NCBI GenBank assembly: GCA_031308135.1
Contig: JAHLJT010000631.1
Location: 149,913,425-149,977,424, forward strand
Length of the DNA stretch: 64,000 nucleotides
Direction: 5' to 3'
Source of the DNA: Acheta domesticus
Taxonomy: Eukaryota; Arthropoda; Insecta; Orthoptera; Gryllidae
Part shown: positions 10,350-63,690 of the stretch, one piece after another
Layout: every line of letters starts with the position of its first letter
Numbering within the stretch: position 1 is the first letter of the stretch
Translations under genes and position numbers: made by a program
The notes under the pieces: model-generated
What the model saw: the letters and a program-made list of their open reading frames with translations, nothing else
Database searches by the model: none
Told to the model about the DNA's origin: nothing

Positions 10350-12879
10350 TTATATGTATAAAATGCGTAAAAAATTGCTTTAAATCGGTAGAATTGAGGT
10401 CGGATCTAGAGTGTGAAATGATTGCAGTCGAAGTTCATGGTAAAAACGATCGAGATACATGGGAAATAATAGGAATGTATCGACCTCCAGGGGAAAATAT
10501 GGGCATCTTGCAGAAACTTGTAGAAAGAACGCGCGTTGGTATCAGAGAGAACAGACAGTTTATTATCGGCGGAGATCTAAATTTACCTCAAATTCAGTGG
10601 GAAGGTAAAGTGACGGAGGGGAGAGGGGCGCAGACGATGGTAAACGAACTAGTTTGGACTAATACCCTAGTGCAGGTAGTAAATTAGCCAACAAGAGAAA
10701 ATGCCGTTTTAGACATATTTTTAACGCGTCCGGAGGGTTCCGTTACTAGTTGGGAGGTAGTTCCAGGTATAAGCGACCACTCGGCTGTGTGTCTAAAAGT
10801 GAAAGGGAACTGTACACTGCACAGAACTGAGCGTAAGAAAATTTACTTGTACCGTAAGGCTGACGTGGCCAATTTACAAAAGTATTTAGTCGATAATTAA
10901 TCCACATGGGCGGGAATTGGTAGTTCTGTAGAGGAGGTATGGAATAATTTTAAGAAAATCATTGATACGTGTATAGATCTCTACGTACCGTTTAAAATCG
11001 TAACAAGAAATCCCGATCCAGAATATTATAATAATCGGATACGAAAGTTAAAAAGCAAAGCAAGGCGGGCATATGGGAAAAGAAAAATCAGTGACCAACA
11101 TTATGAGAAATTTAAGAAACTAACGAGAGAACTATTGGAGGCGAAAGTATTAGCACAGGAAGGATATTTGGAAACGATCCTTACTGATGAAAATAAAAGT
11201 TGGAGCAATTTTTTTAAATACGTACGTAGGCGTAAGGGAAATCGCGAAGAAATCCCGTCGTTAAGAAACGGTAGTAATAACTTGGTGGTAGACGAAAAAC
11301 AAAAAGTAAATATATTTAATCAATTTTTCGCGTCGGTGTATACAGGTAAAAGGACGATCGTCGTAAACGAATGCGCAGGAGAACATTTTGTACTAAATCC
11401 GAACGCACTTAGGAAAAGAATTGCCAAAATATGTAATAATAAATCTACAGGGCCGGACGGAATTTCGGGGGAAATTCTCAAATTAGGAGGAGAAGCTATG
11501 GTATCGTACCTATTACGGCTTTTCGAGATATCGATGAACAATTCTTGTATTCCTCGGGATTGGAAAGATGCCATAGTGGTCCCAATTTTCAAAGGAGGCT
11601 CGCGTCAAAACGTCGAAAATTATCGCCCAGTAAGTCTAACGTCTGTAGTATGTAAGCAAATGGAATATTTGGTGGCAGAATACTTAAGCAGAATTTGGGA
11701 TAAGAATAATATAATTTACGAAGGCCAACACGGTTTTAGAAAAGGATATTCGTGTGAGAGTCAGATAGTCACCGTCAGTCAGGACATTGCTGATTCTCTC
11801 GATAAAGGTTCCATTGTTCATGCAATTATCATAGATTTCACCAAAGCGTTCGACCTCGTTCCCCATGATAAATTAATACAAAAAATTAGTAAGCTTAACA
11901 TAGACAGAAGAATTGCCCTATGGATTCGAGAATTTCTCAGCTCGCGTACTCAACGGGTGGGAATTGGAACAAATTCCTCATCGAGGGCAGAAGTAACGTC
12001 CGGAGTGCCACAGGGAAGTGTGCTAGGTCCGTTGTTATTTATAGCATATATTAATGATATTTGGCGGGAATTGAATCAAAAATACGACTTTTTGCAGATG
12101 ATTGTATAATTTATCGGGAAATTAATAACACAAATGATACAGAAATATTGCAGGCTGATTTAGATAAACTAGAATCATGGGCAACCACAAATGAAATGAT
12201 ATTAAATCCCTGTAAGTGCAAGTTTATCAAATTCGCGCGTTCTAGAAAGACAGACGACGTAAAATATAAATTAGGAAGTCAGGATATTCCGAGAACTAAA
12301 TGTTGCAAATATTTGGGAATTGTAGTAAATGAGGATCTAGGATGGGCAGAACACGTAAATTATGTAGTGAAAAAGGCGTGGAAGGCATTGCATTTTGTGA
12401 TTAGAATACTTAGGAAAGGAAGTGGAAAATCAAGGGAATTAGGGTACACATCTTCAGTACGTCCGATATTGGAATATGGCTCGATATGTTGGGACCCATA
12501 TCGTCTAGGGCAAATTAAATCTCTCGAAAAAGTACAAAAATATGCCGCAAAATTTGTTAGAAGGGGACGTTTAAATTCTGAATTTATATCGTGGGAACCC
12601 TTGGAAAAACGCAGAGAGAAATCACGTCTTTGTGCGTTATTCAAAGCAATAAGGGGTGATCGGCCGTGGGGTGAAGTTCGGGAAAGACTATCAAAACCAA
12701 CATACGTCGCGCGGAAAGATCATGGCTTCAAAATTCGGCAAAGAAAACAGAGAACAGATGTAGGTAAATTCTCATTTATTAATAGAACCATACAAAATTG
12801 GAACAAATTACCTGCAGCAGTACTAGAGACTTTCCCTCAGAATGTCAAAAATTTTAAAATTAGATTAAATAAGTTGTAA
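10350..12879 (+). pseudogene. CR1-like ORF2 (endonuclease-reverse transcriptase), broken
   Basis: One frame runs from about 10350 to 12109 with two stop codons (TAG 10685-10687; TAA near 10897), then shifts frame near 12085 and continues to 12879. Endonuclease remains include GMYRPPG, IGGDLNLPQI and GISDHSAV. Reverse transcriptase blocks include NYRPVSLTSV, GQHGFRKGYSCESQ, IIDFTKAFDLVPHD, SGVPQGSVLGPLLF, FADDCIIY and YLGIVV, so the FADD catalytic pair survives. The C-terminal TDVGKFSFINRTI segment matches the intact copy. The first 60 or so endonuclease residues are missing. It was probably once functional and cannot now make the full protein. Confidence 0.9.
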
Positions 12880-24240: not shown

Positions 24241-24401
24241 AGAATGCACAATCCACAATTCAGTCAGTCTGTGCCTGGAGATTCAGAGTGCCTGTGATCT
24301 GGGACCTGGGTTCTGTGCCTGGGATTCAGAGTCAGTCTGTGCCTGGACGTTGTAGCGAGCGGACGTGCCTTGGGGATCGCTCTCGCGCAGGTAAAGGGAT
24401 A

Positions 24402-25433
24402 ATGGGCTGCGACGTGGAAATGTACCGGGCCCGCATCGGCGGCTGGGCCGCCCGCGTGGCGTGCGTGCTGAGAAAGGGTAGCGTCCCTGCTCCCTCTCTG
24501 GACGCCTTTGCACTGCTAGTTATAGCAGTAATGTTAGTAATTGGTAGCGTGGAGATAAATCCTGGCCCGGTATCTACGCGACGTGGCGCACCAGTGGATG
24601 TTTCATGGAGGTGCGTCGAGTGTTGCAACGGCGGTCTGCGAGGTGAACTGTCGCGCCTTCGACAGGAGTTCTTGCAGGTTACTGCTAAGCTTGCAGCGAC
24701 TCAACAGGAGCTGCAAGTTTTGAAGGCAGCAGCAAGAGTAACGGAGGTGGAGGCGATAGCAGCTACTGCGACGGAGGAGGCAGTGACGTTGGTGGCTCAG
24801 CCGGCCACAGCGGTTCTGCCAGTAGAGGTGACGTCGCCAACTCCGGCGGCGAGTTCCCCAAACGTGGTGTCCACGGCGGTGACGGCATCAACCACATTTG
24901 CATCGGTTGTCAAGGATTCAGCGGCAACGAAAAATTCTAAAAAATGTGTTGTGTTCGGTGACTCTATTGTGCGTCACGTAGGTCACGCAAACCTGCAAGT
25001 TAAATGCTTTCCGGGAATCCGCGTGGAACAGCTGAAATCGCAAATTGAAGCTAGTGACGTGGAAGCCCCGGAAACTGTTATCATTCACGGAGGCTCCAAT
25101 AATTTACGGAGATGTCGCTCATTTGATCACCTCATGGGCGACATCTACGAACTTGGGGTAGCAGCCAAAACGCGCTTTCCATCCTCGCGTATAGTGCTTA
25201 GTGGCGTCATTCGCCGCCGGGATGTTTGGTCCCGTAAGGTGGCGAGGATAAATCGGGACATGGACTTTGTGGCAAAAGCTCTCGGATTCATGTTTCTGGA
25301 TCCAAACGGGTGGATCTCAGAGAGCTCACTAGGTCGAGACGGCGTCCACCTCAACCGGAGGGGCGTTGCGGAGCTCAGTGGCCTCTATACTAGAGTAGCT
25401 GAATTCTGCACACGCCCTCCCGTCGCCCGTTGA
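24402..25433 (+). CDS. CR1-like ORF1 with 2A-like motif and SGNH esterase domain
   Basis: The open frame extends back to 24174, but ATG 24402 is a better start, because it puts the hydrophobic segment near the N-terminus. From that start, residues about 34-48 (DAFALLVIAVMLVIG) form a membrane or signal segment directly followed by SVEINPGP (24546-24569), a 2A-type ribosome-skipping motif. Next come a Cys-containing segment (WRCVECC), a leucine-rich coiled coil (RLRQEFLQVTAKLAATQQEL), an Ala/Thr/Val-rich linker, and an SGNH/GDSL hydrolase domain: GDSIV (nucleophile Ser), HGGSNNL (block III Asn) and RDGVHLN (Asp-His). ORF1 proteins of CR1-group LINEs are known to carry such esterases. The frame ends TGA at 25433; the same frame then reopens through the triplet array. 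Confidence 0.85.
   Translation: MGCDVEMYRARIGGWAARVACVLRKGSVPAPSLDAFALLVIAVMLVIGSVEINPGPVSTRRGAPVDVSWRCVECCNGGLRGELSRLRQEFLQVTAKLAATQQELQVLKAAARVTEVEAIAATATEEAVTLVAQPATAVLPVEVTSPTPAASSPNVVSTAVTASTTFASVVKDSAATKNSKKCVVFGDSIVRHVGHANLQVKCFPGIRVEQLKSQIEASDVEAPETVIIHGGSNNLRRCRSFDHLMGDIYELGVAAKTRFPSSRIVLSGVIRRRDVWSRKVARINRDMDFVAKALGFMFLDPNGWISESSLGRDGVHLNRRGVAELSGLYTRVAEFCTRPPVAR
24546..24569 (+). other. 2A-like ribosome-skipping motif (SVEINPGP)
   Basis: The codons read S-V-E-I-N-P-G-P. The 2A consensus is D-V/I-E-x-N-P-G-P; here Ser replaces Asp and all other fixed positions are met. Skipping would separate the product between G and P, leaving the hydrophobic segment on the short upstream peptide. 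2A-like sequences next to signal-like hydrophobic stretches have been described in APE-type LINEs including CR1 elements. Confidence 0.75.
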
Positions 25434-25549
25434 CGCTGTGAGCGACCGCCGGTCTCGCGTTCCGCGGCCAAATTAAATCTACCGGCAGCGGCGATAGGAG
25501 CGGGGGCTGTTGGTTTCACTCCGGTAACGGTGGCTTCAGCGGAGACGTG

Positions 25550-25687
25550 TGTGACGGTGGAGAAGGCGGGGACGGAGGAGACGACGGAGACGACGGAGGC
25601 GGCGGACACGGCGGCGGTGACTGAGCTGGCGAAGGCGACGGCGGCGGCTGTGACGGCGACGGCGGCGACTGCGGTGTCGTCGTCGTC

Positions 25688-25719
<32 letters not shown>

Positions 25720-25895
25720 CGGCGGAGACGGCGGCCGCGACGGCGACGGCGACGGCGATGGCGGCGGCGACGGCGGCGGCGACGGCGACGACGACGGCGA
25801 CGGCGGCGGCGGCGGCGGCGGTGACGACGATGACGACGGCGACGGAGACGACGAGGGCGGAGACGACGGCGGCGGAGGCGACGACAGAGGCAGCG
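25550..25895 (+). repeat. GGC/GAC triplet array between ORF1 and ORF2
   Basis: Nearly pure (GGC)/(GAC) triplets for about 340 bp. In the ORF1 frame they encode Ala/Thr-rich sequence, continuous with what follows the ORF1 stop. In the ORF2 frame they encode Gly/Asp-rich sequence from 25625, open without a stop into ORF2. The opposite strand is also open in more than one frame. The strand asymmetry and triplet purity suggest slippage expansion. Confidence 0.85.
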
Positions 25896-28639
25896 ACTTC
25901 GAGGGACGCGCCCTTTCAAGAACACTTTCAGGTGAGGAAGGGTTCCTTAGGTTGTTGCAGGTGAACTGTCGTAGTATAATCAATAAAGAAATAGAGTTTT
26001 GGAATCTAGTTGATGCCTGCGATCCCGACATAGTGATAGGGACTGAGTCGTGGCTAACTGAGGAAATCAGGTCCTCTGAAATTTTTCATTCCCATTACAA
26101 GATCCTTAGGAGGGATAGAATTAGCAGAGGGGGCGGAGTCTTTATTTGCGTCAAAGAGGACATTAATATTAGATTAGAGTGGGTCAGTAGAGAGTTTGAA
26201 ATGATGGGAATAGAAATTATTACGTCAGGAACTGTTTTAGAAATTATTGCATGCTATAGGCCTCCGAGCGATGGATATGACATTTTAGATAACATCATTC
26301 AGAGAACGGGAAACGAAAATGGCCATGCTATTGTTATTGGAGGCGACTTAAATATTCCGAGCGTAAACTGGGAGGGAACCGTTAGCGAAGGGAAAGTCCA
26401 AAATTTAGTAAACGGGCTGGTCTGGGAAGAGGGTTTTATCCAGGTAGTTCGGACCGGGACGCGACAGGATGCGATTTTGGATGTCTACCTAATTAGGCCG
26501 AAAGAACTTTTCATATCTTGTGAAGTTGTTGAGGGTATTAGTGACCACAAAGCGGTTCTTCTTGACTTAGACGGAAATATTTCAAGGAAAGGCATTACAA
26601 TAGGAACGAAAGTACGGCAATACAAGAAAGCAAATGTAAGCGGGCTTCAAGGCTTCTTTAGGGAACAATATGACCGCTTTCTAAGAACAGAGGGCGGTAT
26701 GGAAGAAATATGGGGCGTGTTTAAAGATATTATATACGAAGCTTTGCAAAAGTTTGTTCCGTGCAAAATTCTAAAAAATAATCCGGATCCAGAATACTAC
26801 AATGCAAAAATTAGGAGAATGAAGAGGATAACGAGAAAGGCATTTAAGAACAGAAAGCGTAGTAGCGAGCATATGAATATTTTTCGAAATCATTCAAAAG
26901 AATTGGAGCGCGAAAAGAAAATTGCTCAGGAGGCATATTTAAAGAATATTCTAGGTGGGAAGGGAAATAACTGGACAGGCTTTTATAAATATGTTCGTAG
27001 AAGGAAAGGAAATAAAGAGGATATCCCAGTTATTCGCGAAAATGGAAACACGCTAATTAGTGACAATCGGGCAAAAGCGGATGCATTTAATAAGTATTTT
27101 AGTTCGGTTTTCAAAAATAGTACGGACCATCCATTTATTCAAGGGCCTTCGGTTGCGAATCAGTTTAATATTGAAGTAAACGTTCTATGGAATAAAGTAA
27201 AGTCAATGAAAAATGGTAAGTCAAGGGGTCCAGACGACCTTTCTACGGATTTAATTAAACTGGCAGGAAAGGCAATATTACCGTACCTAATTAGAATTTT
27301 TCACGTGTCTTTGAATAATTCAAAAGTACCGGAAGATTGGAAATTAGCCTTTGTCGTACCAATTTTTAAAAGTGGTGACAAAACTAAATTATGCAATTAT
27401 AGGCCGGTAAGTCTTACGTCAGTGGTGTGCAAGCTTATGGAGAATCTAGTTGGGAGTTACATTAAGAAAGAATGGGAAATTAAAAAATGGCTCTACGATG
27501 GGCAACACGGGTTCAGGAGTGGTTATTCATGCGAAAGTCAGGTAGTCACGCTATTTCAGGATCTAGCAGATGAAATTGACGCGGGCGGGAGAGTAGATGC
27601 AGTAGTTATAGATTTTGCTAAAGCATTTGATGTGGTTCCACACGATCGGCTTGTACAGAAATTAATGAATTCAGGCATAGACCCCAGGGTGGTGGCGTGG
27701 ATTAGCGAGTTTCTGCGAGATAGAAAACAGAAAGTCCGAATTGGACAAGAGTTATCTTCCGGGGCAAGCGTTACGTCAGGAATACCGCAGGGGAGTGTCA
27801 TTGGACCCCTTCTATTTCTAGCTTTCGTCAATGATCTGTCGGCGCAATTAACCTCAAATGTTCGGCTATTAGCAGACGATTGCATAATATATCGTAGTAT
27901 TAACTCGAAAAGAGATGAAGAAATACTGCAAAAGGATCTTGATGCGTTACATTACTGGGCGGAAAATAACGGAATGTCCATAAATAGCTCTAAAAGTAAA
28001 TCCATCATTTTTGGCAGGGGTCATAATTACAGTGAAACACATTACCGTTTAAATAATGACATTATTCCGAGAGTTTCCTCGTGCAAGTACCTAGGAATTC
28101 ATTTCGATAGTAAATTAAGTTGGAAAAAACACGTAGATTTTGTTGTAGGGAAAGCCTGGCGATCTCTTCACTTTGTAATGCGCATCCTAAAAAAGAGTAC
28201 GGCAAACGCGAGGGAAATTGCTTATTTATCTCTTGTTCGTCCAATAATGGAATATGGAACAATTTGTTGGGATCCGCACAAGATTATGCAGTGTAAACAC
28301 TTGGAAAGGATTCAGCATAGGGCAGCTAAATTTACTTTCAGGGACAAGAAAACGGCAGGGTGGGATTCACTCAAAAACAGGCGATCAGTAGCAAGACTCT
28401 GCGCCTTGTATAAAGCTTATAATGGTCATCCAGCTTGGAAAGAAATTAATCGGCGGCTATGTATTCCTACATACATCAGTAGAGTGGATCACAGGCACAA
28501 AATAAATTTAAGACAGCAGAGAACGGATGTCGGGAAATTTTCTTTTACAAATCGAACGATTACGGAATGGAATAGATTGCCTGCAAAAACCTTTGAACCC
28601 TTTCCTCAAAGTGTTCAACAGTTTAGGAAATTAATTTAG
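25625..28639 (+). CDS. CR1-like ORF2: AP endonuclease and reverse transcriptase
   Basis: The frame is open from 25625 (after TGA 25622-25624) to TAA 28639. There is no early ATG; the enzyme proper begins near 25952. Counting from 25952, the endonuclease has N5 (QVNCRS), E32 (GTESW), GGDLNIPSVNW and GISDHKAV, all catalytic blocks of APE-type LINEs. The reverse transcriptase has NYRPVSLTSVV, GQHGFRSGYSCESQ, VVIDFAKAFDVVPHD (Asp 554), SGIPQGSVIGPLLF and the active-site LLADD (Asp 642 and 643), then YLGIHFDSKLSWKKHV. The C-terminus TDVGKFSFTNRTITEWNRLP matches the broken copy at 10.35 kb. It should cut the target and copy the element RNA by target-primed reverse transcription. How translation starts is unclear: reinitiation or frameshifting after ORF1 are both possible. 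No lesion is seen. Confidence 0.93.
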
Positions 28640-28804
28640 GGTATTATTAAGTAAATGAGGGAGAATAGTGGGTTATATAGCGATGCATAAGTGTTCTATT
28701 GTGAAGTGAGGTGTAGTGCAGTGTATAGCAGAGAAATAAAGAAGGAAATGTTTTCAGGTCTTAGTGAAGTGAAGTGCAGTGAAGTGCAGTGTAATACTAA
28801 TGCA

Positions 28805-28805
<1 letters not shown>

Positions 28806-28835
<30 letters not shown>

Positions 28836-29007
28836 CTCTTAATGTAATTTAATGTTTTATGAATCAGTCAGTTTTTAATATTATTATCATTATTTTACCA
28901 TTATTATTACTACAATTAGTATATAATTTGCATCTTCTTCTTCTTCTTCTTCTTCTTATTATTATTATTATTATTGTTGTTGTTATTATTATTATTATTA
29001 TTATTAC
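28806..29007 (+). repeat. Microsatellites in LINE 3' UTR: (GT)n, (CTT)n, (ATT)n
   Basis: (GT)n at 28806-28830, (CTT)n at 28932-28958, then ATT with interposed GTT to 29007. They lie between the ORF2 stop and the AATCTA tail. Confidence 0.9.
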
Positions 29008-29124
29008 TATTAGTGGTTTTGGAGTTCTATATTACGGAAAGGCTGTGTATATTTATGTTTTTGTAATTAGCTGCCACCGGGTTATGCCCAATTGCAGTTT
29101 AAATAAATCTAATCTAATCTAATT

Positions 29125-30376
29125 AAAGTTGATGGTTGACTTTTATTATAGAAATCATTCATTGTATCTTCCCAACTCATGCACTCAATATTTGGGTAGT
29201 CACTCTAGTTAAAAGCCTCCAAGAATTAACAATAATTCAATACAATTTTTAAGGAGACCTTTAAGTACTTCATCGTTTATTAATACTTATATTCTATGAT
29301 TTATATATAAGGTAATGGGAAGTAACATTGCACGATCTTTGTTTCTTTTTAAGTTCTATTTTGTTTCATTAATATTCACAATAATATTGAGAATTTAATC
29401 CTTCACAAACGTTCAAGGTTTCTTCAAAATATTGAAGACACAGCTTCCATAATTTGAAAGATTTTATTACTTTTTTAAAAGCAAGCCAAGTGTCAATGCT
29501 ACCCTGCAAGGGTCAAACATTGCTACCTCTATTTATTTCCTAGTCTTTGGCAATGTTTAAATGTGTGAGAGTTGGATAGGAAACAGAAACACTTTAATAT
29601 GCACCAGAAAATTATTAGTTTGGTTTTTGACAGTTCAAATACTCTAATCAGGGATAAATACTGCTTTGAGAACTTACTAATCTAAAAAGGTTTTATTAAC
29701 TGTTTTACGTTGTGATAAAGTGCGTCAGGGAAAAAGTGCTCACTCCTCTTTATTTTTAGTCTGGGAAACTCATTGTCAGCAACAGTATCGTATTTTGGCA
29801 TAACACTTTCATCAACGTCATGTTAAGTGGATTTTCCAATTCCAGACAGTTCAGTAGATTTTTCCTACTTAATTTTCCACTATTTACTTTTTCCATTGCT
29901 TAGTGCATTTTCACTTCATCATAGAATTGTTAATGTTAGATATTGGAATTTTTATTTGTTTACGTGGCAGAGTTACAGTGCAAATATGGCGACAAAAAAG
30001 TAATTTTGTATCAAATGTAATTAATGTTTACAATTTATAAGTCATATGCTTTAGAAATGATATAAATAAACTCAATTATGTCAATTGTTTTAATGTAAAT
30101 GTAGGGGCAAGATGGCCAGTATGGTAATGTCACTCTGAAAATAGTATATGCTATTAATGCATTTTGTCTTGTTTATTTGTATGAGTTGAAATGTTAGATT
30201 CATGCAAACTTACACAATACAACTTTTCCATCAGTGGAAAAACCTTATCCAGGAATGTAGTTTAAAGTGGCGGATCCAGGGGGAGGCTTGGGGGTCATGC
30301 CCTCTCCCCAAAGGCCTAGTTTTCATTTGTTAAATTTCTTTTATTTGGCAAAGTTGATTTAAATATTTATGTTAAA
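29125..30376. other. Unassigned AT-rich sequence
   Basis: No supported open frame, RNA gene or repeat boundary. Short ORFs are absent or random. Confidence 0.6.
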
Positions 30377-60459: not shown

Positions 60460-61668
60460 TTACATCACTTTTGATCGGAGAAGAGGTTTTAGAAGAAGGG
60501 TTCTAATTTTGTTTTTGGCAGCGAGATATCGAGCGTGTGCATGCCAGCAAAGACCGCTGTCAAGAAACACGCCCAAATATCTCGCTTCGCTCTGCCATGG
60601 GAGACGCGTGCCCGCCAAGCTCACCGTTTCATTGGGGTCTGCCCTCTTACGAGTAAATTTGACAGCCACACATTTTCCTAGGTTTAGAGCGAGTCGTTTC
60701 CGACTCAGCCATTCGGGAAAGGCGGCGAGACAATTGCTTAAGTATTTAATTGACTGCCTTCCGTTCGCCGATTTCGCGTAATACGCAAAATCATCCGCAA
60801 ACATCAGGAGACCGCAGCATTGAATACCAGTCCTTTTATCAGCAGGAAGCGGCGCGTCATTAACGTATAAGCCGAAGAGCGTAGGACAGAGAACGCTCCC
60901 CTGAGGTACACCCGTCTCGGCACGTCTGAGGGACGAATGTACTTTGTTAACTCGCACTTTGAACGGCCTGTCAGAGAGGAAACTCGCGATCAATCTGAGG
61001 TAGCAGTCGCTTACCCCCAACCGCGCGAGACACGCGAGCAACCCCGCATGCCACACGGAGTCGAAAGCAGACCGCATGTACAGAAAGACAGCAGGCAAAT
61101 TTTGCCGTCTCTCGAGGGCGAGGCCGATCTCTGTGCAAAGCCGCGTAAGCTGCTGCGCGGAGCTGTGACCAGCTCTAAAGCCAAATTGTTCATGTCTGAA
61201 AAGGTTGAGACGACGTATTTCCTGTTGCAACCGCGACAGAATCAGTCTCTCAAACGTCTTCCCTAAGATGGAGAGTAGATTAATAGGTCTATAACTGCTC
61301 CGGAGTAATTTGTTTTTGCCAGGTTTAGGTAATAGCGAGATGGTCGCTAATCTTCATGCCTTGGGAAAATATCCGCGCGCCAGGCATGCATTCAGGAGCT
61401 CGAGTAAAACCTCGACTCCGTGCCCACCCAGAGCGCGCAGTTGCGCTGCTGATACACCATCTGGGCCACGAGCTTTCTTAGGATTTAAAGCTCTCAGCTC
61501 CGTCTGTAACTCCCTCCTCGTCACCCGGCGCGCCGAGAAGAGGGGGGCCGGCGGGCCAACGGCATTGTAGCTGGCTGTGCGCGCCAATGGACCACCGCCT
61601 GTTACAGTGGTGACCGACGGCGGCGCAGCGGCGCCCATTCCGAACGAACGAAACTGCAGCTCGAGCAA
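60460..61668 (-). pseudogene. Jockey-type ORF2, reverse transcriptase domain
   Basis: RALNPKKARGPDGVSAAQLR opens the domain. A TGA near 61354 interrupts; beyond it the same frame gives LLPKPGKN, YRPINLLSILGKTFERLIL, EQFGFRAGHSSAQQL, VFLYMRSAFDSVWHAGLL, TGVPQGSVLCPTLFGLYVND and LMFADDFAYYAKS. In the first catalytic block 'FLYMRSAFD' the usual Asp before the aromatic/Ser run is Tyr-Met, so a key Asp appears lost; FADD is kept. YLGVFLDSGLCWHAHA follows. Confidence 0.85.
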
Positions 61669-62249
61669 ATCCGCGAAGATTTCACTCTTTGCTGCGTCGT
61701 CCCACGCGTAAGCAGGCGTAGATGGTGGAGCACCCGGCGCCCCCGTCCCGGCATTGCTCTGGATTGGGCTGTTTACTCCCGGTTTACGGCCCAGCGCACG
61801 AAATAGATCCCAAATGTGCCTCTCAAGAAGATTGCACTTTGCAATGGTTTCAGACCATTGAGCAGCTCTCTCATCTCGTAGAGATGAACGGAATTCTCTG
61901 CTTAATCTGCGCGCCCGCTCTCCGTCAACGGGATCACCGTAGCGGCGATGAACCTTAACAGTTCTGCGCAGATCTGTTAAGATCCTTCTTTGGTTATCTG
62001 TGAGCTGAGGGCGAGAATTCTCTATTCGCGTGACAGTTGTATTTTACTTGAAAACCGATTTCAACGTTACAGTGAAATGATTCACTGCTTCGTCGATCTC
62101 AGCTTCCGTATTTAGTGGTTTCTGCTCAAGCTGAGAATTCAGCTGTGTTGCGAAACCTGCCCAGTCTGTGTCATTCGAAGTTCGAAAGTTAGCTCGGCGT
62201 GTCACTGCAAGAGACGCCACTACATGTTACAGGATTATGATCGGAATCC

Positions 62250-62861
62250 AGTGCGGCGATTGAACGGGGAACCACGCATTCAACGCCTTTCACGATCATA
62301 AAATCAATAACGCCCTGGTTCCGATTTCGTACCTCCAGAAAATGTGTAGGGCTATTCGGTGCGCAGATCTCTACTGCAGATCCGCCTTGTCGCTACAAGA
62401 TTGGCAATTTTGTTGCCGTTTCTATTTGCTCCGAGGCCACCCCAATTCCTATGTCTAGCGTTAAAATCACCCAGAAGGATGACTTTGGAATTAAATGCAA
62501 GAAGTGCATCAATTCCAGACGATTGGTCTGGGCAGTAGACGGATACCACTAGAAGTCGACCGCTTCCCACCCAAACGTACGACCGCCTCTAGAGACGCTA
62601 GAGCAATAGCAGGGATTTCTCTTTTCGCTGCGGCAATTCGCGGCCAAGCGCGATCGCTACACCGCCACCTGGCCTGCATACGCGGTCTCGGCGATAAACA
62701 GCGAATCCCCGGAGTTTGAATTTGTTTTCATCACTAAGCCACGTTTCTTGTAAAGCCAAGATATCTAGTTGAAATTCAACTGAGAATTGTTCCAATTGCT
62801 GGGCTTTTAGTATTGCACTTCGCGCATTCCAGGTGCAGGCGCGGAGAGGTGCTGTTCGCAT
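62250..62861 (-). pseudogene. Jockey-type ORF2, endonuclease domain
   Basis: ATG 62861 begins MRTAPLRACTWNARSAILKA (catalytic Asn), DILALQETWLSDENKFKLRG (catalytic Glu) and YRRDR..GGGVAIAL. A frameshift near 62600 moves the reading to the frame that gives VVSVYCPDQSSG and VILLGDFNARHRNWGG (catalytic D-x-N). The domain pattern is the APE-type endonuclease. Confidence 0.8.
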
Positions 62862-63690
62862 AGCTACGCGGTTATTTGAGTTAGGCAATTGTTCGTAAAT
62901 ACGCTCTAATATCACCAAAAACTGGCTTTTGGTGAGTATGGGCGTGGCAGCTGCGGGTGCAGTGGGCCCCGCTCCGGACGCCTGTGAATGCGTTGCTTTG
63001 GCCTGCGCGGTGCGTGCCGCGCCAGAGCGTTGCACGTCCGCAGAATTGGCCGGCCCGCCGCTAGCTGCCTGCCGAGGCGCCTTGTTCCTTCTAGGATCTT
63101 TTAGGCGATTGAGTCTCTCGGCCTCTTTTGCACGCGCGTCGGAAGGACGCGTGGGCAACGTGCAAAATTTGCACCCTGTGTACGATGCATCATGGTTCTT
63201 CTTACAATTGCAGCAAACAGGTAAAAGATTGAAATTACCTCTGTTTGGGCTATGCGCCCTTCCTTTCTTATCGGCCTCTGCTTGGTGACCCTCGCCCGTG
63301 CAGAGGCGGCAGCGCACTTAGCACTCATAATTGCGAGCGATGTGGCCCCAACGGCAGCATCGCAAACAAAATCGAGGTCTTGCCCACTTTTCGCGTTGGA
63401 CCTCGATTGTAAAGGATTCTATTTGTTTGAGATGATAGATCTTGTGCGACTCGACGCTGTCACGAAGTGTGACAGCAAAAGTTCCTGTGGGAACTTGTAC
63501 TCGCCGAGTTTCGGTGCCTGTTGCACCTTCGGCTGCACCAGAATCGTGGTTCCTTGCGACCACAGATTCTTTCAGCAGACAGATTTGCCTGACTGCATGA
63601 AGATCATAGCCCAGCTCTCTTAGCTTACTGTCTACAACTTCTTTGGTATAGCCGAGCGGAAGCTCTCGAATAAATACTCTTAAGAGCTCT
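62862..63690 (-). pseudogene. Jockey-type ORF1 (gag-like, CCHC zinc knuckles), one stop
   Basis: The N-terminal part reads RELPLGYTKEVVDSKLRELG, the PRE_C2HC-type domain that precedes the zinc knuckles in Jockey gag proteins. CLRCCRWGHIARNYEC is the first CCHC knuckle; RCRLCTGEGHQ and CCNCKKNHDASYTGC are the second and third. A TAA (63318-63320) sits between knuckles one and two in the same frame. An Ala/Thr/Pro-rich tail with KSQFLVILERIYEQLPN follows. Such proteins package the element RNA. It is inactive through the stop unless read through. Confidence 0.8.

What the first reader, a model, noticed from the sequence alone, without database searches (positions are those of the whole stretch)
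24501..24569. 2A-like ribosome-skipping motif fused to a hydrophobic anchor in a LINE ORF1
SVEINPGP follows a 15-residue hydrophobic run 34 or so residues after a good ATG (24402). If skipping works, the ribosome would release a short anchored peptide and then make the coiled-coil/esterase protein from the same mRNA. If it fails, the whole product would be membrane-targeted. The usual first Asp is Ser here, so efficiency may be reduced. 2A motifs in APE-type LINEs are established; this variant in this lineage may be new.
Basis: partly seen in the sequence, partly recalled or inferred. Interest (0 to 1): 0.8.

Follow-up and report, generated by a model that had tools for sequence, protein, structure and literature searches.

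The report
Insect LINE with ribosome-skipping membrane leader

Summary
The 2A-like octapeptide behind a hydrophobic run is real (24501-24569, residues 34-56 of a 343-aa LINE ORF1 starting at ATG 24402). It is not chance. The own-genome pattern G-x-(V/I/M)-E-x-N-P-G-P gives 426 matches against 2 for the reversed control. Between two subfamilies the 2A core keeps pN 0.107 against pS 0.727.

The family residue is Gly: 20 of 20 fetched sister copies, 18 of 18 copies of a second subfamily, 80 of 80 homologs with an exact motif, and 99 of the first 100 genomic matches listed. AGY-Ser occurs once in 2.33 Gb, in this copy. Gly there is an established functional 2A form in viruses (PMC12846837).

Best reading: a StopGo leader in insect LINEs with esterase ORF1. 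Skipping frees a 55-aa leader (conserved MGC..E.YRARIG.WA.R head plus hydrophobic C-terminus) from the coiled-coil/esterase. Failure would leave the esterase with an N-terminal signal anchor, as in sea urchin 2A signal sequences (PMC4981915). Skipping and targeting were not tested. ORF1 and ORF2 share a frame across one UGA in most fetched relatives, a possible second recoding site.

The parts
24331..29127 (+). LINE copy (family A), about 4.8 kb, ending in (ATCTA)n-type short repeats without poly(A)
   Evidence: blastn of the window against 20 sister copies; shared sequence begins at 24327-24337 in 18 of 20 (two are 5'-shorter) and ends near 29110-29127
24333..24401 (+). short 5' untranslated region, about 69 nt; ATG 24402 is the first ATG of the element (A at -3, G at +4)
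   Evidence: 5' boundary from sister copies; sequence
24402..25433 (+). ORF1, 343 aa plus TGA stop
   Evidence: 137 matched stretches in the own genome, a lower bound
24402..24455 (+). conserved head MGCDVEMYRARIGGWAAR (residues 1-18)
   Evidence: head found in 42 of the 129 homologs held, 42 of 42 followed by the 2A motif or a degenerate form; pN 0.185 in residues 1-22 against 0.738 in spacer 23-32
24507..24551 (+). hydrophobic run FALLVIAVMLVIGSV (residues 36-50), candidate signal anchor and tunnel-binding part of the 2A
   Evidence: Kyte-Doolittle 2.95 over 15 aa; median 2.7 in 56 homologs with enough upstream sequence, against a median of 1.09 for the best 15-mer in the rest of the protein
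24546..24569 (+). 2A/StopGo core octapeptide SVEINPGP (residues 49-56); family form GVEINPGP; predicted missing peptide bond between Gly55 and Pro56
24630..24797 (+). predicted coiled coil, residues 77-132 (a PHD finger present in many relatives is lost here; remnant WRCVECC at residues 69-75)
   Evidence: one long predicted helix, block pLDDT 78-92 for residues 81-120, 64 for 121-130; PHD in relatives
24942..25412 (+). SGNH esterase domain, residues 181-337, with Ser188, Asn233, Asp313 and His316 in the catalytic positions
   Evidence: Pfam PF13472 E 9e-7, 30 bits, below the Pfam cut-off of 32.9; profile match to PDB 4c1b, ZfL2-1 ORF1 esterase, E 7e-18; Foldseek; catalytic roles from PMC3905857
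25431..25433 (+). ORF1 stop TGA followed by C; in most fetched relatives ORF2 lies in the same frame after this one stop
25952..28639 (+). ORF2: AP-type endonuclease and reverse transcriptase (start codon uncertain; in this copy not in the ORF1 frame)
   Evidence: Pfam RVT_1 3.5e-30, Exo_endo_phos_2 1.4e-9; frame

Best explanation
The segment is a selected 2A/StopGo element of the Gly type, GG(V/I)ExNPGP, sitting in a 55-residue leader at the N-terminus of the ORF1 of a young insect LINE family. Shown by sequence: position, conservation across the sampled clade, purifying selection on the core, and Gly at position 12 with Ser as a private change of this copy. Inferred: while Gly55 is in the P site the hydrophobic run is still inside the exit tunnel. 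Most ribosomes therefore release the leader there and restart at Pro56, giving a small peptide with a hydrophobic C-terminus and a soluble 288-aa coiled-coil/esterase protein. Ribosomes that do not skip let the run emerge as a signal anchor with positive charges on its N-terminal side, giving a membrane-inserted ORF1 protein with the esterase on the far side. The element thus sets a ratio between soluble and membrane-routed ORF1 protein.
For: Motif in 426 genomic places against 2 for the reversed pattern. p12 is Gly in 99 of the first 100 listed places with all four Gly codons used (GGA 29, GGG 26, GGC 24, GGT 20), so the constraint is on the residue. Between subfamilies A and B (one copy each) the 2A core has pN 0.107 and pS 0.727, while the spacer just upstream has pN 0.738. 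p12 is Gly in 80 of 80 homologs with an exact motif and in 105 of 106 including degenerate ones, out of 170 held; 64 have no readable motif. p7 is Leu in 76 of 80, p8 Leu in 79 of 80, p10 Ile in 79 of 82, like the L-rich upstream type that ends in (A/G/S)G at p12 in PMC12846837. Gly-type cores are as common as Asp-type in viruses, and Gly-type sequences were active (PMC12846837; PMC6249498). The hydrophobic run is much stronger than anything else in the protein, with net positive charge upstream in 52 of 56 homologs. A sea urchin 2A signal sequence shows this dual targeting experimentally (PMC4981915). [quoted passage not shown]
Against: No translation experiment for any member. The L-rich Gly-type motif 5 was not among the four upstream motifs assayed in PMC12846837 (motifs 1, 3, 4 and 6). 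The hydrophobic run could serve the exit tunnel only. The run is short (12-15 residues) and no signal-peptide predictor was available. Ser at p12 was not among the variants flagged as functional in that survey, and Ala at that position abolished or weakened activity, so this particular copy may skip poorly. Of 106 homologs with a readable leader, 26 have a degenerate motif, though some may be dead copies. The homolog searches list at most their best 120 hits and score only the about 8,000 candidates sharing most words, so distant Asp-type relatives could be missed.
Confidence: 0.68

Rival explanations
1. The motif skips, but the hydrophobic run is only the tunnel-binding part of the 2A and never acts as a membrane anchor; both products are soluble or the leader is degraded.
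For: L-rich upstream stretches are a standard part of several 2A classes, and the upstream residues contact the exit tunnel (PMC12846837). Conservation is highest right next to the core (p5-p11), weaker further out.
Against: Hydrophobicity reaches about 12-15 residues, is kept in 56 of 56 homologs with enough upstream sequence (minimum Kyte-Doolittle 1.85), and has positive charges on one side in 52 of 56. The analogous sea urchin sequence does route a reporter when uncleaved.
Confidence: 0.33
2. No skipping at all: the leader is a conserved signal anchor or structural segment of ORF1 that merely resembles a 2A.
For: No functional data; membrane roles are proposed for esterase ORF1 proteins (PMC3905857).
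Against: Conservation of E, N, P, G, P at p14 and p16-p19 with near-saturated synonymous change, and the match to the (D/G/C/N)(V/I)ExNPGP core, are not expected of an anchor.
Confidence: 0.1
3. The Ser is a lineage-specific, tuned 2A variant that lowers efficiency.
For: Ser is not a flagged functional residue at p12, so lower efficiency in this copy is plausible.
Against: AGY-Ser at p12 occurs once in the 2.33 Gb genome, in this copy (TCN-Ser was not searched); 20 of 20 fetched sister copies have Gly.
Confidence: 0.02
4. Chance resemblance.
For: None beyond the short motif.
Against: 0 of 100 window shuffles; 426 against 2 in the genome; conserved in proteins named from two termites and a cricket.
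Confidence: 0.01

Closest known systems
2A-like sequences in APE-type non-LTR retrotransposons (Odon et al. 2013; reference line only seen, paper not held)
   Same: 2A-like octapeptide in a LINE-encoded protein
   Different: The later paper PMC4981915 describes probing databases with D(V/I)ExNPGP; such a probe would not match this clade, which has Gly at p12. What Odon et al. list was not read.
Sea urchin NLR 2A signal sequences (Roulston et al. 2016, PMC4981915)
   Same: N-terminal 2A with hydrophobic residues; skipped product cytosolic, unskipped product enters the secretory pathway
   Different: There a 26-aa leader on host immune genes, found with the Asp motif. Here a 55-aa leader with an extra conserved head, on a LINE ORF1, Gly at p12, function untested
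Viral StopGo elements, L-rich motif 5 with p12 = Gly (Li et al. 2026, PMC12846837)
   Same: L-rich upstream part, Gly at p12, V or I at p13, E at p14, NPGP
   Different: p15 is mostly Gln or Leu in these homologs, preferentially Pro in the viral Gly-type motifs; source is a cellular retroelement, not an RNA virus
Type IV (esterase) ORF1 of CR1/L2 elements, e.g. zebrafish ZfL2-1 (PDB 4c1b, PMC3905857)
   Same: Coiled coil followed by SGNH esterase with the catalytic residues kept
   Different: In the survey of PMC4120745 the esterase type appeared only in vertebrate L2 and CR1 groups; the named relatives here are insects, many relatives carry a PHD finger, and there is a 2A leader

Membership tests
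2A/StopGo translational recoding elements | Core (D/G/C/N)(V/I)ExNPGP | tested here: met
   Family form GVEINPGP, subfamily B GVESNPGP, 80 of 80 exact homologs with Gly at p12. The window copy itself has Ser at p12 and so departs from the core at one position
2A/StopGo translational recoding elements | Conserved upstream context contacting the exit tunnel | tested here: met
   p5-p11 A-(V/T)-L-L-(V/I)-I-G conserved in about 80 homologs; resembles motif 5 as described in words in PMC12846837; the contact itself is not testable here
2A/StopGo translational recoding elements | Residue-level purifying selection on the core | tested here: met
   pN 0.107 against pS 0.727 between one A and one B copy; all four Gly codons used at p12
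2A/StopGo translational recoding elements | Separated products in translation, abolished by changing NPGP | not testable with these tools
   needs an in vitro translation assay
Dual-targeting 2A signal sequences (sea urchin type) | Hydrophobic N-terminal segment that routes the unskipped product | tested here: inconclusive
   Hydrophobicity and charge pattern fit; no signal-peptide predictor or cell assay
APE-type LINE, CR1/L2 lineage | ORF2 with AP-type endonuclease and reverse transcriptase | tested here: met
   Pfam hits
APE-type LINE, CR1/L2 lineage | Esterase (Type IV) ORF1 | tested here: met
APE-type LINE, CR1/L2 lineage | Placement in the CR1 or L2 clade by RT phylogeny | not tested

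The most novel reading that the evidence does not exclude
One LINE mRNA carries two recoding switches in a row: a Gly-type StopGo after a membrane-seeking leader with its own conserved head, and a leaky UGA between ORF1 and ORF2 in the same frame. It would yield leader, soluble ORF1 protein, membrane-anchored ORF1 protein and a small amount of ORF1-ORF2 fusion, so that an insect retroelement uses picornavirus-like and alphavirus-like expression tricks together to place its RNP at membranes.
Probability: 0.25. Interest if true: 0.75.

Novelty: new variant of a known kind. Interest (0 to 1): 0.5.

Why it matters
2A elements are described as only rarely used in cellular genes (PMC12846837), and the database search described in PMC4981915 used the Asp form. 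A clade of insect LINEs with hundreds of genomic matches and Gly at that position shows where such a search is blind. It offers a natural, well sampled set of StopGo sequences outside viruses. If the leader does control membrane routing, it gives a direct test of the proposed membrane role of esterase-type ORF1 proteins.

Tried and rejected
Ser as a lineage variant: rejected.

Upstream ATG 24174 as the true start: rejected, it lies outside the element.

Asp-type families in the same genome: only 5 matches (reversed control 0). Two (L049, L050) sit in a stop-broken frame unlike ORF1; two (L051, L052) are single PHD-type ORF1 copies; one was not read. So no Asp-type ORF1 family was seen.

Structure after the ORF1 stop as a readthrough stimulator: not supported, z -0.33, -1.35 and -0.90.

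A first loose motif tally over the homologs was confounded by an esterase motif and replaced. A first tally of subfamily B missed L034, whose head is damaged; one search shows it has GGVESNPGP. The p12 = Gly-only genome count never completed. RT clade placement and host naming were not attempted.

Papers, what was seen. PMC12846837: abstract and opening, the sections on tunnel interactions, core variants, upstream motifs and diversity, plus passages. PMC4981915: first parts of the Abstract section and of Results. PMC6249498, PMC3905857, PMC5972666, PMC5009743: passages. PMC4120745: abstract and passages. PMC11512398: listing only. Odon 2013 and Rao 2025: reference lines only, not held. Six octapeptide spellings of the GG form (GGVEINPGP was not among them) gave 0 papers. 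Rao 2025 could already list these elements.

Full report
What is there. The window is part of a 2.33 Gb genome. A LINE copy spans about 24331-29127, judged by where 20 sister copies share its sequence; 18 of the 20 begin at 24327-24337. Its 5' UTR is about 69 nt, so ATG 24402 is the first ATG of the element. ORF1 (24402-25433) has 343 residues. ORF2 (25952-28639) holds an AP-type endonuclease and a reverse transcriptase. Residues 34-56 of ORF1 read DAFALLVIAVMLVIGSVEINPGP, exactly at 24501-24569.

Not chance. The motif occurs once in the window and in 0 of 100 shuffles. In the whole genome the pattern G-x-(V/I/M)-E-x-N-P-G-P, with position 12 left free, has 426 matches against 2 for the reversed pattern. 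Only the first 100 places were listed; they fall into 29 spellings, including several clearly different families, with p15 mostly I, L, Q, P or S.

Gly, not Asp or Ser. I fetched 40 loci chosen from the 137 matched stretches; some loci account for two stretches, and calls its counts lower bounds. In family A, p12 is Gly in 20 of 20 sister copies and NPGP is intact in 19 of 20; L027 has NLGP. In subfamily B (about 56% identical), 18 of 18 copies read GGVESNPGP; the head of L034 is damaged and L032 has a stop in the leader. Of two stop-bearing intermediate copies, L047 keeps GGVEINPGP and in L048 the frame is lost. Ser spelled AGY at p12 occurs once in the genome, at the window copy (the reversed control also gives 1; TCN-Ser not searched). 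Asp at p12 occurs 5 times (control 0). Two of these sit in an unrelated stop-broken frame and two are lone ORF1 copies; one was not read. Three protein searches found 19, 171 and 190 hits; lists are capped at 120, and I hold 170 distinct proteins. Of these 170, 106 have a readable leader motif, 80 of them exact. p12 is Gly in 80 of 80 exact and 105 of 106 in all; 64 have no readable motif, many of them fragments that start further downstream. Named hits come from Zootermopsis, Cryptotermes, Periplaneta and Gryllus. The motif is readable in Zootermopsis P0030, several Cryptotermes and two Gryllus proteins; the two Periplaneta proteins, Cryptotermes P0083 and Zootermopsis P0166 show none. The host is probably a polyneopteran insect (inference).

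Selection. Between one A copy (L009) and one B copy (L029), counted by Nei-Gojobori, residues 45-57 have pN 0.107 and pS 0.727. Residues 1-22 have pN 0.185 and pS 0.489. The spacer 23-32 has pN 0.738. The esterase has pN 0.229 and pS 0.762. All four Gly codons are used at p12 among the listed genomic copies. The constraint is therefore on the peptide, as expected for a nascent-chain element.

Known function of the Gly form. Li et al. 2026 (PMC12846837; parts read) extend the viral core to (D/G/C/N)(V/I)ExNPGP. They count 1,207 cases with Gly at p12 against 908 exact D(V/I)ExNPGP, and describe an L-rich upstream class (motif 5) ending in (A/G/S)G at p12. Motif 5 itself was not among those assayed. 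Rare p12 residues C, N, V and T were active at 88% or more in their natural contexts; [quoted passage not shown] Duck hepatitis A virus 1 uses GxExNPGP, and changing that Gly to Ala weakened but did not abolish skipping (PMC6249498). So the family form is a plausible active 2A, and the Ser copy is of uncertain strength.

The rest of ORF1. The profile matches the zebrafish ZfL2-1 ORF1 esterase (PDB 4c1b, E 7e-18) and many PHD fingers. The window's own Pfam esterase hit is below the curated cut-off, but the predicted model (mean pLDDT 68.7) has SGNH hydrolases among its best Foldseek matches, and Ser188, Asn233, Asp313 and His316 fill the catalytic positions. Many relatives carry a PHD finger between the 2A and the coiled coil. 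Family A and subfamily B have lost it, with WRC..C left over. In the survey of PMC4120745 the esterase ORF1 type was seen only in vertebrate L2 and CR1 groups, so these elements lie outside it.

Leader. A head MG(C/L)..E.YRAR(I/V)G.WA.R precedes the hydrophobic run in 42 of the 129 proteins held, and 42 of 42 go on to the motif or a degenerate form of it. It is conserved beyond what a 2A needs, so the released leader or its unskipped form probably has its own role (inference). The hydrophobic 15-mer has a median Kyte-Doolittle value of 2.7 in the 56 homologs with enough upstream sequence (minimum 1.85), against a median of 1.09 for the best stretch elsewhere; upstream net charge is positive in 52 of 56. 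The leader helices in the predicted model have low confidence.

Mechanism. StopGo acts when Gly55 is in the P site. The hydrophobic run then lies 8-19 residues back, still inside the exit tunnel (established knowledge), so the choice to skip is made before any membrane targeting. Skipping frees a 55-residue leader whose hydrophobic part is at its C-terminus, like a tail anchor, and a soluble protein from Pro56. Failure lets the run emerge as an N-terminal signal anchor. A sea urchin NLR leader was shown to work this way (PMC4981915). [quoted passage not shown] The skipping and targeting steps are inferred.

A possible second switch. ORF2 lies in the ORF1 frame in 14 of 20 sister A copies and 16 of 18 B copies (the window copy, six A copies, L033 and L046 are out of frame). 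In 11 of the 14 in-frame B copies scored there is no Met in the open stretch before the endonuclease; most in-frame A copies do have one about 45 codons upstream. The stop is TGA followed by C in all 23 A and B rows shown. A third family (L055) has TGA-G with the same arrangement; L054 does not show it, and L053 does not reach the ORF1 stop. Dinucleotide shuffles leave that frame open in 52, 56, 70 and 350 of 1000 for two B copies, one A copy and L055, so the support is moderate. No structure clearly more stable than shuffles follows the stop. Readthrough, non-AUG start or reinitiation remain open.

Verdict. Whether Odon 2013 or Rao 2025 already list it could not be checked. The highlighted Ser is unimportant.

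Noticed in passing
25431-25960 and L009-L046, L055: ORF1 and ORF2 share one frame across a single TGA in 14 of 20 sister A copies and 16 of 18 B copies; in 11 of 14 B copies scored there is no Met before the endonuclease; candidate stop-codon readthrough.
   Followed up: partly
24311-24350 and the 5' ends of L009, L010, L012, L016, L018: Some copies carry two to four units like CAGTCTGTGCCTGGACGT at or near the 5' end; promoter monomers or reverse-transcription slippage.
   Followed up: no
24423-24437: Codons 8-12 (YRARI) are identical at all synonymous sites between A and B although synonymous sites elsewhere are near saturation; small sample, could hint at an RNA or promoter element under the head.
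   Followed up: no
25540-25900: GGC/GAC-rich microsatellite between the ORFs, of different length among copies; the ORF2 frame differs among copies as well.
   Followed up: partly
L029-L046, ORF1: Subfamily B ORF1 proteins carry Ala/Thr repeats of variable length between coil and esterase (354 to 409 residues in 15 open copies).
   Followed up: no
L049, L050: A two-copy repeat has a canonical DVETNPGP spelling in a frame broken by stops and unlike ORF1.
   Followed up: no
11135-12879 (+) and 60460-63317 (-): Reverse-transcriptase and endonuclease frames of what look like two other retroelements in the window.
   Followed up: no
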